The position numbers and the translations under genes were made by a program. Below are positions 6,672 to 20,476 of a stretch of DNA of 64,000 nt, piece by piece. How positions within the stretch are numbered: the first letter of the stretch is position 1; the number at the start of each line of letters is the position of its first letter. The stretch spans positions 1,765,001 through 1,829,000 of the forward strand of contig NZ_JQLL01000001.1 in NCBI RefSeq assembly GCF_000744185.1. Reading direction: 5' to 3'. Under the pieces are notes generated by a model, which had not been told where the DNA came from, searched no databases, and saw only the letters and a list, made by a program, of their open reading frames with translations. Source of the DNA: Carnobacterium funditum DSM 5970 (GTDB lineage Bacteria > Bacillota > Bacilli > Lactobacillales > Carnobacteriaceae).

Positions 6672-6755
6672 AACTTAAATTCTTTATTATATTTAGCCAT
6701 AAAAAACACACCCCAAATAGTTAGATTTTTCCTCTAACTTTTGGGGTGCAGTACA
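6671..6755 (-). mobile_element. Left-end relic of an IS150-like element fused to nagB
   Basis: On the minus strand this begins TGTACTGCACCCC, has the hairpin CCCCAAAAGTTAGA / TCTAACTATTTGGGG, and then ATGGCTAAATAT. The intact element at 8985 starts the same way: TGTACCGACCCC, the same hairpin, and ATGGCAAAATAT. About 85 bp of the left end, including the first ten codons of the transposase ([10 protein letters not shown]), remain and run straight into nagB. Confidence 0.75.
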
Positions 6756-6785: not shown

Positions 6786-7844
6786 TGGATTGTAAGATTA
6801 AGCTATACAAATAAAAAAGCCATTCGTGATACACTCTAATTGTATTTCCAACCATAGAAAACAAGGAGTGATCACAAATGACCTATACCCATATTACCAT
6901 GGATGAACTAGTGATGATAGAAGCTTATTACCATCAAGGTATTCCAGTTGCTAAAATAGCTGCTTACTTGAATCGTACTCGAACACCGATTAATAATGTT
7001 ATCAGGTTCTTCAGAGCAGGACATACAGCTTTCGAGTATTACCTACGGTATAAGAAAAACAAGAAGCAGTGTGGACGCGAAAAAGTTGTTTTACCAGAAG
7101 AACAACATCTTTATATCAAGGAAAAAGTAGCTGAAGGCTGGACGCCTGATGTCATTATTGGCCGTAAAGAAATGACAATAGACTGTTCCGTACGAACACT
7201 TTATAGACAATTTAAAGAAAAAACATTCGATGAAGCTACCCTTCCAATGAAAGGGAAAAGAAAGCCTACCGGACATCAAGAACGTAGAGGTAGACAAGCT
7301 TATAAACGAAATATCTCTGAAAGAATAATAGATTATCCAACATTTAAAGAAGAATTTGGTCCTATCGAAGGAGATACCATTGTAGGTGTCCGCCACAAAA
7401 GTGCGGTCATTACTCTAGTAGAGATTTTATCGAAAGCTATCATTACCTTAAAGCCCAAAGGGCGTAAAGCCTGCGACATTGAGAGTGCTATGAATCAATG
7501 GTTCCAATCCATACCAAAAAAATTATTCAAATCAATTACTTTTGATTGCGGTAAGGAGTTCTCCAACTGGAAATCTTTGTGCAACCAGCATGATGTCGCT
7601 ATCTACTTCGCTGACCCTGGAACGCCTTCACAACGAGCTTTAAACGAGAATTCTAATGGGCTTCTTCGAAAAGATGGATTGCCAAAAGAAATGGATTTCA
7701 ACGAAGTTGATCAGGCTTTCGTATCGTCTGTTGCACACAAACGGAATATAATTCCAAGAAAGTCATTAAATTACCAAACACCGCTGGAAGTTTTTATGAG
7801 TTACATGGATGAAGATATTTTGTATAGCTTAATTTGACAAATCA
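6786..7844 (+). mobile_element. Complete IS30-family insertion sequence
   Basis: The element is about 1.06 kb long, the usual size for the family. Its ends form an imperfect inverted repeat sharing ATTAAGCTATACAAA: the left end begins TGGATTGTAAG and the right end, reversed, begins TGATTTGTCAA. It contains one transposase gene. I cannot see a clear target duplication next to it (TCG on the left, GAT on the right). Its insertion replaces the end of the small membrane protein gene to its right. Confidence 0.85.
6878..7837 (+). CDS. IS30 family transposase
   Basis: This 319-residue DDE transposase has an N-terminal helix-turn-helix (VAKIAAYLNRTRTPINNVIRF), a linker region and the catalytic core. 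IEGDTIVGVRHKSAVITLVE carries the first Asp, TFDCGKEFSNW the second, and the segment with ENSNGLLRK the final Glu. These match the IS30 pattern of D, D and E with an ENSNGLLR-type block. The start ATG follows AAGGAGTGATCAC. It looks intact and is presumably active or recently active, since a near-identical copy is at 1-543. Confidence 0.93.
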   Translation: MTYTHITMDELVMIEAYYHQGIPVAKIAAYLNRTRTPINNVIRFFRAGHTAFEYYLRYKKNKKQCGREKVVLPEEQHLYIKEKVAEGWTPDVIIGRKEMTIDCSVRTLYRQFKEKTFDEATLPMKGKRKPTGHQERRGRQAYKRNISERIIDYPTFKEEFGPIEGDTIVGVRHKSAVITLVEILSKAIITLKPKGRKACDIESAMNQWFQSIPKKLFKSITFDCGKEFSNWKSLCNQHDVAIYFADPGTPSQRALNENSNGLLRKDGLPKEMDFNEVDQAFVSSVAHKRNIIPRKSLNYQTPLEVFMSYMDEDILYSLI

Positions 7845-8961: not shown

Positions 8962-9039
8962 AGATAAAAAAAGAACCGTGTCTATGTACCGACCCCTAGA
9001 AGTTAGACCTAAAAAATCTAACTTTTGGGGGTTTTTCAT

Positions 9040-9612
9040 ATGGCAAAATATACATTTGAACTTAAACTAGAAATCATTCAAGCCTATTTACGTGGTGAAG
9101 GGGGATATGGAACACTAGCGACTAGGTTTGGGGTTTTACACGCATACCAGGTTCGTATGTGGGTTAATAGTTATAAACAGTTTGGCGAAGAAGGACTTAT
9201 GAGAAAAAGGAAAAATAATTCTTATTCTATTCAATTCAAAACAAATGCGGTAGAATTATATTTAACTACAGAGATGTCCTACTTTGAATTAGCGAATTTC
9301 CTTGAAATCACTAATCCTTCTATTCTTACACGTTGGGTAAAGGAATATCGTCATTATGGTATTCAAAGGCTCTCTAAACAACAAGGGAGGCCACCGAAGG
9401 TGTCTGATAAAAAAGATAAAGTCATTATCTCTGAAAAGCTGCCTAATAAAGTAGAAACAACCCGAATCCAAGAACTTGAAAGACAAAACCGCGCTTTACA
9501 AATTGAGATTGCTTGTTTAAAAGAATTGAGGAGGTTGCGTCGCGAGGAAACTCGACTAGAAATGAAGTTATCTCAAGAATCATCCACAACCTCCGAAGAG
9601 ACTTCCAATTAA
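9040..9612 (+). CDS. IS3-family transposase OrfA (helix-turn-helix)
   Basis: The protein has about 190 residues and starts at ATG 9040 (MAKYTFELKLEIIQAYL), just after the leader hairpin. It has two helix-turn-helix units (GYGTLATRFGVLHAYQVRMWV and SYFELANFLEITNPSILTRWV), followed by a leucine-zipper-like tail (IQELERQNRALQIEIACLKEL), as in IS150 OrfA. The 3' end overlaps orfB by about 100 bases. A fused OrfAB transposase would arise by -1 frameshifting there. Confidence 0.9.
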   Translation: MAKYTFELKLEIIQAYLRGEGGYGTLATRFGVLHAYQVRMWVNSYKQFGEEGLMRKRKNNSYSIQFKTNAVELYLTTEMSYFELANFLEITNPSILTRWVKEYRHYGIQRLSKQQGRPPKVSDKKDKVIISEKLPNKVETTRIQELERQNRALQIEIACLKELRRLRREETRLEMKLSQESSTTSEETSN

Positions 9613-10472
9613 AAGAAATTCTTGAGGTTCTTAAATTTCCAAAATCAACTTACATGTATTGGCAAAAGAGATTCAATCGGCCTAATAAGGATGAAGAAGA
9701 TGAAAAATTATTACTTCAAATTCGTAAAGATCATAAGGATTATGGGTATCGTCGTGCACAAAAAGAGATGGAAAAGCGAGGACGCAAAGTAAATAAAAAG
9801 AAAGTTCAACGATTAATTAAAAAGCTAAAAATCCAAGTACACTCTTATACTCGTAAATCACGTAAGTATAGTTCGTATAAGGGGACTGTTGGTCGCATAG
9901 CGAAAAATAATATCCACCGCCGGTTCTATACTAATGTAGTTCATCAAAAAATCACAACGGATACGACTGAATTCAAATACTTTGAGACGGATAAAAACGG
10001 TGTTATCCGTCAGGGAAAGCTCTATTTAGACCCTTTCTTAGATATGTATAATAGTGAGATCATCTCTTATCGTATTTCAAAAAGACCTACTGCATTAGCA
10101 ATAATGGGGGCTCTTGAAGAGGCTATCGAAGCTACAAGTAACTGCCATTATAGACGTACCTTTCATTCTGATCAAGGTTGGGCCTATCAAATGAAAAGCT
10201 ACTCCTATAAATTAAAAGAACACAAAATTTTTCAAAGTATGTCCCGTAAGGGAAACTGTCTAGATAATTCACCAATCGAGAATTTTTTTGGAATACTCAA
10301 ACAAGAAATTTATTATGGCGAAGTTTACCGCAGCTTTAATGAATTAAAACAAGCAATAGAAAGTTATATCGAGTATTACAATAACGAACGGATGAAGAGT
10401 AAATTAAACTGGATGAGCCCTATTCAATTTAGAGAACAACAAACTGTACTCCTTAATGATTACTCTGCTTGA
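9513..10472 (+). CDS. IS3-family transposase OrfB (DDE catalytic)
   Basis: This 319-residue rve-type integrase core has an HTH_21-like N-terminal region (HKDYGYRRAQKEMEKRG). The catalytic triad is Asp in ITTDTTEFKYF, Asp in FHSDQGWAYQ and Glu in DNSPIENFFGILK, ending with the YYNNERMKSKLNWMSP block typical of the family. The frame begins inside orfA, so it is probably made as an OrfAB fusion. It appears intact. Confidence 0.92.
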   Translation: MFKRIEEVASRGNSTRNEVISRIIHNLRRDFQLKEILEVLKFPKSTYMYWQKRFNRPNKDEEDEKLLLQIRKDHKDYGYRRAQKEMEKRGRKVNKKKVQRLIKKLKIQVHSYTRKSRKYSSYKGTVGRIAKNNIHRRFYTNVVHQKITTDTTEFKYFETDKNGVIRQGKLYLDPFLDMYNSEIISYRISKRPTALAIMGALEEAIEATSNCHYRRTFHSDQGWAYQMKSYSYKLKEHKIFQSMSRKGNCLDNSPIENFFGILKQEIYYGEVYRSFNELKQAIESYIEYYNNERMKSKLNWMSPIQFREQQTVLLNDYSA

Positions 10473-10753
10473 GTGTCTCTAAGGTCACAGCTAATCTCTA
10501 AACAATAAAAAAGCAGTCTTTGTTTAAACCATTTTTAGAAATAATTATAGTGTAAAGGTAAAAGAGCACAAAAAAAGGAGTAGAATTAACTACTCCGTTA
10601 AAAGTCTAACTATTTGGGGTCACTACACTAGTAAGGTTCTTTTTTTATCTGATTTCTTATGTTGTTATTAAGTTTATAAAATAGATGCTTAATAATCTTA
10701 GTAGCAAATGTCCGAAGCTCAAGAAATTAGCAATGACAGTTTATTTCACTGCC

Positions 10754-20302: not shown

Positions 20303-20433
20303 TTTTATCTCCTTTTGAAATATCAGCTCATCACTGCAATCATTTTAAAACTTATTATACCCCATATAGTATAATAAGTATATTATTCTGTTCAGCGAAA
20401 GAAGGAAGGCTGTATTAAGCCGACCCCAAAAAG

Positions 20434-20476
20434 TTAGATCTAAAAAATCTAACTTTTTGGGTCACTACACACTACA
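20434..20476. mobile_element. Miniature IS150-like relic
   Basis: GACCCCAAAAAGTTAGAT, a short spacer, then ATCTAACTTTTTGGGTCACTACA. The left part matches the left-end leader of the IS at 8985 and the last bases match its right end (GGTCACTACA). The element appears reduced to its two ends by internal deletion and now forms a hairpin. Confidence 0.6.

What the first reader, a model, noticed from the sequence alone, without database searches (positions are those of the whole stretch)
8962..10650. IS150-like element inserted exactly in the loop of a terminator
The flanks of the element (8962-8977 and 10635-10650) are a perfect 16-bp inverted repeat, with the 3-bp target duplication CTA at the loop. 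Several IS families prefer terminator-like hairpins. The event leaves a hairpin split by 1.6 kb.
Basis: seen in the sequence. Interest (0 to 1): 0.55.

Follow-up and report, generated by a model that had tools for sequence, protein, structure and literature searches.

The report
Transposon that targets terminator hairpin loops
A common bacterial jumping gene lands in the middle of a hairpin that stops transcription at a gene end, and many of its relatives in Firmicutes do the same while carrying stop-like hairpins of their own at both ends, which might let them insert with little harm.

Summary
Confirmed, and larger than reported. The element (8985-10627, 1643 bp) is an IS3-family, IS150-type insertion sequence with a 3-bp CTA duplication. 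Its empty site is a 16-bp perfect hairpin with an 11-nt loop; CTA is the exact loop centre. Three of four identical copies in this genome sit in such hairpins. For one of them two relatives carry an intact hairpin at the orthologous place.

In 107 relatives with clean duplications (41-100% aa identity, Bacillota) the two flanks pair far better than random host positions or swapped flanks. With 23 further copies (130), the best hairpin centre lies within 10 nt of the duplication in 93. 77 of 107 lie within 150 bp of a gene 3' end (random 5%). IS30 copies of the same genome, though 7 of 12 are also near gene 3' ends, show no hairpin centring. E. coli IS150 is inconclusive. No stem sequence common to the lineage was seen, so the palindrome appears to be read.

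The elements carry inward terminator-like hairpins at both ends; the left one is built on the terminal repeat and covers the orfA ribosome site. I infer that they split a host terminator and supply their own. Closest known: IS1397/ISKpn1/ISPsy8 (REP palindromes) and IS1272 (terminator hairpins).

The parts
8962..8977 (.). left arm of the split terminator hairpin (A-run + stem)
8982..8984 (.). target-site duplication CTA, left copy, centre of the 11-nt loop
8985..10627 (+). IS150-type insertion sequence, 1643 bp, TG...CA ends; four identical copies in the genome
8985..9007 (+). left terminal inverted repeat (IRL), also the 5' arm of the left inward hairpin
8991..9036 (+). inward-facing terminator-like hairpin with U-run at the left end; its 3' arm holds the G-run in front of orfA
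   Evidence: coordinates read off the fold of the first 75 nt; the simple consensus scan did not list it, its loop limit being 8
9040..9612 (+). orfA (helix-turn-helix, HTH_28 / HTH_Tnp_1)
9516..9522 (+). T_TTA_AAA slippery heptamer for -1 frameshift joining orfA and orfB
   Evidence: the meaning of the heptamer is recalled knowledge
9513..10472 (+). orfB (HTH_21, rve integrase core), IS3 family transposase
10567..10596 (-). inward-facing terminator-like hairpin at the right end (minus strand): 7-bp stem then T7
   Evidence: 1 found, shuffles 0.9 on average in that region; kept in relatives
10604..10627 (+). right terminal inverted repeat (IRR)
10628..10630 (.). target-site duplication CTA, right copy
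10635..10650 (.). right arm of the split terminator hairpin (stem + T-run)

Best explanation
The element belongs to a widespread IS150-type lineage of the IS3 family in Bacillota whose integration step prefers the centre of hairpin-forming palindromes. In practice these are mostly intrinsic transcription terminators just after gene stop codons, and a 3-bp duplication is made in the loop. The transposase (or a host factor that it follows) reads the geometry or symmetry of the palindrome rather than one fixed sequence. The insertion splits the host terminator. The element offers a replacement for each direction: an inward terminator-like hairpin built on IRL at the left end and another on the minus strand at the right end. 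The left hairpin also pairs away the orfA ribosome-binding site, so read-through transcripts should neither pass nor be translated. Shown here from sequence: target preference, its precision, and the presence and pairing of the end hairpins. Inferred: what is recognised (DNA cruciform, duplex palindrome or transcribing polymerase), that the targets terminate transcription, and that the end hairpins do so in the cell.
For: Own genome: 3 of 4 copies in hairpins. 107 clean copies: flank pairing median -20.5 (69 copies of relatives at about 59% identity or more) and -17.0 kcal/mol (38 copies, 41-58%) against -8.9 and -8.2 at random host positions; rank tests 1.6e-23 and 4.1e-13; against swapped flanks, which keep the A- and T-runs, 5.7e-30 and 7.1e-11. 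Hairpin centre within 3 nt of the duplication centre in 60 of 130, within 10 nt in 93 of 130 (uniform 7.5 and 22.6). 77 of 107 within 150 bp of a gene 3' end against 5% of 780 random positions; median stop-to-insertion distance 27.5 nt, n=84. 23 further copies: 17 pass -12 kcal/mol (random 22%). Natural empty hairpins at the orthologous site in two relatives. IS30 in the same genome: 0 of 12 pass -12 and 1 of 12 is centred within 10 nt. End hairpins: by a scored rule 50 of 53 distinct right ends against 0 of 212 shuffles; left with varied pairs such as A-T/G-C, C-G/T-A, A-T/C-G; ribosome-site G-run paired to IRL in 48 of 52 distinct left ends.
Against: Not every copy obeys: 26 of 107 clean copies do not reach -12 kcal/mol (54 of 69 and 27 of 38 do), 37 of 130 have the best hairpin centre more than 10 nt away, and own copy L003 lies in an A-rich stretch without a hairpin. 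19 of 107 fall inside ORFs, 10 of these with strong pairing. Being near a gene 3' end is not special to this lineage: 7 of 12 IS30 copies are too. E. coli IS150, the name-giving element, gives no signal with the same test (2 of 10 pass -12 against 43% at random). Copies are not all independent: some genomes give many, three G059 copies share a right flank, and several Acidaminococcus sites share a stem. L311 and L312 have weak left hairpins. All evidence is sequence-based.
Confidence: 0.82

Rival explanations
1. Survivorship: the element inserts anywhere, and only copies in harmless intergenic regions behind genes remain, where terminators happen to be.
For: 88 of 107 copies are outside ORFs, which selection alone could give; IS30, without hairpin preference, is also near gene 3' ends in 7 of 12 copies.
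Against: Selection for intergenic sites would not centre the insertion in the loop: mean pairing falls from -17.0 at the site to about -7 at 16 nt on either side. IS30 copies show no such centring (0 of 12 within 6 nt). 10 of 19 copies inside ORFs also have well-paired flanks.
Confidence: 0.06
2. The element reads A-runs and T-runs at a set spacing (bent DNA), not the palindrome.
For: A-run of 4 or more on the left in 94 of 107 and T-run on the right in 87 of 107. Some sites without a hairpin, e.g. L003, keep the A-run.
Against: Swapping right flanks between copies keeps the runs but lowers the pairing (swap ranks 5.7e-30 and 7.1e-11), so the stem complementarity itself is special.
Confidence: 0.1
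3. Transcription-coupled targeting: paused RNA polymerase, an R-loop or local supercoiling at terminators attracts the integration complex, and the DNA hairpin is incidental.
For: Sites look like terminators just behind stop codons, where polymerase pauses (general knowledge).
Against: Symmetric centring on the loop (median offset 0) fits a symmetric DNA structure more simply than a directional process. Not excluded.
Confidence: 0.25
4. The hairpin around the window copy is a chance inverted repeat.
For: None beyond the high A+T content.
Against: z -6.26, repeated in other copies and in relatives.
Confidence: 0.01

Closest known systems
IS1397, ISKpn1 and ISPsy8 (IS3 family) in REP / palindromic units
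   Same: IS3-family elements; ISPsy8 makes a 3-bp duplication at the symmetry axis of a predicted REP hairpin; transposases said to set the specificity of IS1397 and ISKpn1 (PMC1525189, passages; that IS1397 is in the IS150 group is recalled).
   Different: Their targets are REP sequences of the host. Here the targets are terminator-like hairpins that differ widely between and mostly within genomes, in many Bacillota; a repeated target within one genome was noticed in G059 and Acidaminococcus.
IS1272 / TnSha1 (IS1182 family) in staphylococci
   Same: Targets secondary structures, 3 of 7 TnSha1 sites being predicted terminator hairpins, with no primary-sequence specificity (PMC4923244, passages).
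   Different: Deletes the stem-loop and makes no target duplication; one insertion is drawn at the base of a terminator hairpin. Another transposase family.
IS150 (E. coli)
   Same: Nearest named element, with ISKpn8, among the IS3-family elements compared: 39% orfB identity against 28.7-29.7% for IS3, ISKpn38 and ISEc15 (grouping support 89/88 in the tree). It also has a right-end hairpin by the same rule.
   Different: No left-end hairpin of this kind. Same flank test negative. 9 of the 12 distinct sites that I read lie beside hok/mok or ibs loci.
ISSau2 (IS150 group) and IS1447 (IS3 family), Bacillota
   Same: IS3-family elements of Bacillota; ISSau2 is classed in the IS150 group, 1660 bp, TG...CA (PMC4433286, listing and passages); IS1447 duplications are mostly 3 bp (PMC6211511, outline, passages and section 6).
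   Different: For ISSau2 the paper cites that no nucleotide-sequence specificity was found, and some of its sites are genes. IS1447 has 5'-TA ends and +1 transcriptional slippage. What I read of either paper reports no terminator targeting. I did not place either element in my tree.
5' terminators of insertion sequences ('mobile attenuators', Naville and Gautheret 2010)
   Same: Terminators upstream of transposase genes, proposed to stop read-through expression; IS3 is among the families named (PMC2965389, section 13).
   Different: There linked to protection against external promoters, not to an element that splits a terminator and replaces it.

Membership tests
IS3 family | orfA with HTH and orfB with rve integrase core, IS3 family model above cut-off | tested here: met
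   Pfam HTH_Tnp_1, HTH_21, rve; NCBIfam NF033516 260.2 bits with orfB, cut-off 160
IS3 family | TG...CA ends and 3-bp target duplication | tested here: met
IS3 family | two overlapping frames joined by -1 frameshift | tested here: inconclusive
   Overlap and T_TTA_AAA heptamer present; frameshifting itself not testable here
IS150 group | OrfB closer to IS150 than to other IS3 subgroups | tested here: met
   39% to IS150 and ISKpn8, 28.7-29.7% to IS3, ISKpn38 and ISEc15, the only other named elements compared; tree grouping 89/88, drawn open
REP-targeting IS (IS1397/ISKpn1/ISPsy8 type) | insertion at the symmetry axis of a palindrome with 3-bp duplication | tested here: met
   window copy exactly central; 60 of 130 within 3 nt
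REP-targeting IS (IS1397/ISKpn1/ISPsy8 type) | target is a repeated REP sequence family | tested here: inconclusive
   Own-genome sites differ in sequence; three G059 copies share a right flank and several Acidaminococcus massiliensis sites share a CTGTTGC stem. No REP search was made
IS1272-type hairpin replacement | no duplication, stem-loop deleted | tested here: not met
   both arms kept, 3-bp duplication

The most novel reading that the evidence does not exclude
A large, old lineage of plain two-gene insertion sequences practises terminator exchange: the transposase recognises the hairpin (cruciform) form of any intrinsic terminator, opens it at the loop, and the element supplies substitute terminators for both strands. 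This would make terminators a general safe harbour, and the IS150 group as a whole (including REP-targeting IS1397) a family of structure-reading integrases whose specificity a search for sequence motifs would miss.
Probability: 0.4. Interest if true: 0.78.

Novelty: new variant of a known kind. Interest (0 to 1): 0.62.

Why it matters
An element of the same IS group has been described as having no target sequence specificity (ISSau2, passages); a specificity for structure would be missed by looking for a sequence motif. If right, this predicts where these elements land, may explain how high copy numbers are tolerated, makes old insertion sites a map of terminators in poorly studied genomes, and offers a simple system for asking whether an integrase reads DNA hairpins.

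Tried and rejected
Left-arm bias: a first gap measure suggested that insertions lie towards the left arm (Wilcoxon p 1.7e-4 and 0.015). That measure counted the duplication in the left flank only; with the duplication centred the median offset, among copies within 15 nt, is 0, so I withdraw it. Base profiles (49 copies) still show the A-run nearer than the T-run; unexplained.

E. coli IS150 was meant as an outgroup control. I read 22 loci, chosen by me from one plasmid hit and from 60 listed rows out of 3429 records; 20 had both ends, 12 were distinct and 10 had a duplication. By the flank test it is negative, but 9 of the 10 have GCCC within 45 nt before and GGC within 25 nt after the element (8 GAGGC, 1 AGGGC), against 3.7% of 4785 nearby positions. 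Most are paralogous hok loci and two differ by one base, so I call it inconclusive. Five copies of 24%-identical IS3-family elements on an E. faecium plasmid were read by eye only; no A-run/hairpin pattern was obvious.

Left ends: RNAalifold on a MAFFT alignment gave no structure, and an ungapped terminator finder missed 35 of 130 left ends. Folding each end singly replaced it; the script's own pass count was 108 of 130 elements and 39 of 52 distinct ends. Of the 13 distinct failures 12 have 16 or more pairs between the first 26 and the later bases and L312 has 11; I put most of the failures down to where the T-run was looked for. Right ends: the first rule passed 130 of 130 but is lax (46 of 212 shuffles pass); with a score of 10 it is 50 of 53 distinct ends against 0 of 212.

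Rows dropped before the counts: 26 of the 80 named loci (an end or a flank missing, or ends not found by my patterns; one, L084, mis-phased), 2 of 64 loci of the multi-copy groups, and 18 copies without a 3-bp duplication, of which 12 pass -12 kcal/mol. In the further set 83 loci gave 23 new copies; 15 were copies already used and 45 had no accepted pair of ends. Of the 23, L138 is the copy that I had already seen as L058. Natural empty site for the window copy: not found.

Literature: ten searches listed no paper that I could see to report IS3-family targeting of terminator loops. Subscription papers are not held. I opened ten papers, for passages, except section 13 of PMC2965389 and section 6 and the outline of PMC6211511; the others are PMC9208149, PMC7335449, PMC1525189, PMC4923244, PMC6382973, PMC5678879 (no match for my terms), PMC4433286 and PMC11708052.

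Full report
What is there. The element runs from 8985 to 10627 (1643 bp), begins TG and ends CA, and is flanked by CTA on both sides. orfA (9040-9612) carries helix-turn-helix domains, orfB (9513-10472) an rve integrase core, and the IS3-family model scores 260.2 bits against a cut-off of 160. The frames overlap in the -1 sense at T_TTA_AAA (9516-9522). The flanks 8962-8977 and 10635-10650 are a perfect 16-bp inverted repeat. The empty site is stem, GTGT-CTA-GTAA, stem, so the duplicated CTA is the exact middle of the loop; it folds at -20.2 kcal/mol, z -6.26. The nearest right-hand ORF, on the minus strand, ends 123 nt from the site.

Other copies in the genome. Four identical copies exist. 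Three lie in hairpins flanked by A- and T-runs: L001 (this one), L004, and L002, where the insertion is about 5 nt off the loop centre. The fourth, L003, lies in an A-rich stretch without a hairpin. At L004 the same place in two congeneric genomes (L287 in G002, L288 in G004) holds an uninterrupted hairpin with A- and T-runs: in G002 the alignment runs across the junction, in G004 the hairpin directly adjoins the aligned flank. I did not read the place in the two other congeneric genomes with a match. So a hairpin stood there before the insertion.

Relatives. A scan of named genomes gave 279 relatives, of which the best 80 were kept; 54 of these 80 had both ends and both flanks by my patterns, and 40 had a clean 3-bp duplication. 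With 4 own copies and 5 from G002 this makes 107: 69 at about 59% identity or more and 38 at 41-58%. Duplex energy between the two 34-nt flanks has medians of -20.5 and -17.0 kcal/mol against -8.9 and -8.2 at random host positions nearby; -12 or better in 54 of 69 and 27 of 38 against 29.5% and 21.1%. Against flanks swapped between copies, which keep the A- and T-runs, the rank tests give 5.7e-30 and 7.1e-11. These p-values treat copies as independent, which they are not fully: some genomes give many copies, several Acidaminococcus sites share a stem, and three G059 copies share a right flank.

Further copies. 83 more loci were processed with an end-finder blind to hairpins: 15 were copies already used, 45 had no accepted pair of ends, 23 were new, one of which (L138) I had seen before as L058. 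Of the 23, 17 pass -12 and 15 pass -15 kcal/mol, against 22% and 9% of random positions.

Precision. Sliding the fold centre along each rejoined site, mean pairing is -17.0 at the duplication and about -7 at 16 nt on either side. The best centre within 60 nt is within 3 nt of the duplication centre in 60 of 130 copies, within 6 in 82 and within 10 in 93; uniform placing would give 7.5, 14.0 and 22.6. For IS30 in the same genome it is 0, 0 and 1 of 12. Selection for harmless intergenic sites would not be expected to produce this precision.

They look like terminators by place as well as shape. 77 of 107 copies lie within 150 bp of the 3' end of an ORF, 31 of them between convergent 3' ends, against 5% of 780 random positions; the median distance from stop codon to insertion is 27.5 nt, n=84. 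This place alone is not special: 7 of 12 IS30 copies are also near 3' ends. A-runs of four or more stand left in 94 of 107 and T-runs right in 87 of 107.

What the element brings. Near the right end there is a stem followed by a T-run on the minus strand, in the window 10596-10577 with T7. By a scored rule 50 of 53 distinct right ends have one, against 0 of 212 shuffles. At the left end IRL forms the 5' arm of a hairpin that ends just before orfA. In 52 distinct left ends the pairs vary on both sides (position 4: A-T or G-C; 6: C-G or T-A; 8: A-T or C-G), with a median z of -7.3 against shuffled 3' halves. A strict automatic rule, which also asked for a T-run beside the stem, passed 39 of 52. 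In 48 of 52 the G-run that would be the orfA ribosome site (GGAGG in 19, GGGG in 29) lies in the 3' arm, with all or all but one of its bases paired to IRL, 6-11 nt before the start codon; 44 of 52 have T4 or longer between base 41 and the start. E. coli IS150 lacks the left hairpin but has a right one. Terminators upstream of transposases are known as protection from external promoters (PMC2965389, section 13).

How it most likely works. IS3-family elements move as circles that integrate with a short stagger (recalled). Here the integration complex appears to choose the loop of hairpin-forming DNA. No sequence is evidently shared by the stems that I read across genomes, so symmetry or an extruded cruciform is the likely cue; polymerase pausing at terminators is the serious rival. 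Two copies (L061, L082) have 11- and 14-bp repeats spanning the loop instead of 3 bp, as if cut further apart, which might fit a structured target. Once in, the split host terminator is flanked on each side by the element's own hairpin. Termination by these hairpins, and relief of the left one in transcripts that start inside IRL, are inference.

Distribution. In the tree of 78 OrfB rows the terminator-associated elements fall in several deep branches beside E. coli IS150; IS3, ISEc15, ISKpn38 and the 24% elements lie outside (grouping support 89/88, drawn open). IS150 itself is unclear: negative by the flank test, but 9 of 12 distinct sites lie beside hok/mok or ibs loci, 9 of 10 sites with a duplication have GCCC before and GGC after the element, and the Rfam sok model aligns across the junction in L264.

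What is known. IS1397 and ISKpn1 target REP palindromes, and ISPsy8 hits the axis of a predicted REP hairpin with a 3-bp duplication (PMC1525189, passages). IS1272/TnSha1 targets terminator hairpins among other structures by another route (PMC4923244, passages). ISSau2, of the IS150 group, is said to show no sequence specificity (PMC4433286, passages). Ten searches, listed under Tried and rejected, showed me no report of loop targeting of terminators by this group. Hence: new variant of a known kind, with a clean and testable pattern.

Noticed in passing
window 20416-20469: A 54-bp palindromic relic made of the left and right ends of an IS150-type element (TAAGCCGACCCC...GGGTCACTACA), itself a hairpin close to a T-run; possibly a minimal element or a leftover.
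   Followed up: partly
window 6688-6755, minus strand: Left-end relic of a second IS150-type element (TGTACTGCACCCC type) just upstream of an IS30-type copy (the name IS30 is my reading of the transposase sequence).
   Followed up: no
G000:C1:188140-188183 (L014): Palindromic mini-element bounded by two left-type ends (TGAGCC...GGCTCA), in a stretch folding at -32.8 kcal/mol.
   Followed up: no
L061 and L082: Copies flanked by 11-bp and 14-bp direct repeats spanning the loop, instead of 3 bp.
   Followed up: no
L207, L208, L211 (G059): Three copies share the first 20 bases of the right flank, so the target there seems to be a repeated hairpin sequence.
   Followed up: no
L245, L260, L264-L275 (E. 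coli IS150) and L341 (ISKpn8): IS150 and one ISKpn8 copy sit beside hok/mok or ibs loci (9 of 12 distinct IS150 sites read); 9 of 10 sites with a duplication have GCCC before and GGC after the element.
   Followed up: partly
L264 124-277: Rfam sok model RF01794 aligns over its whole length across the host/IS150 junction above its gathering score, taking in about 77 bases of IS150; the seed may deserve a look.
   Followed up: partly
window 6878-7837: IS30-type transposase with 17 matches in this genome; 12 copies served as negative control.
   Followed up: yes
L144: A relative inserted in the T-run just behind an intact stem rather than in the loop.
   Followed up: no
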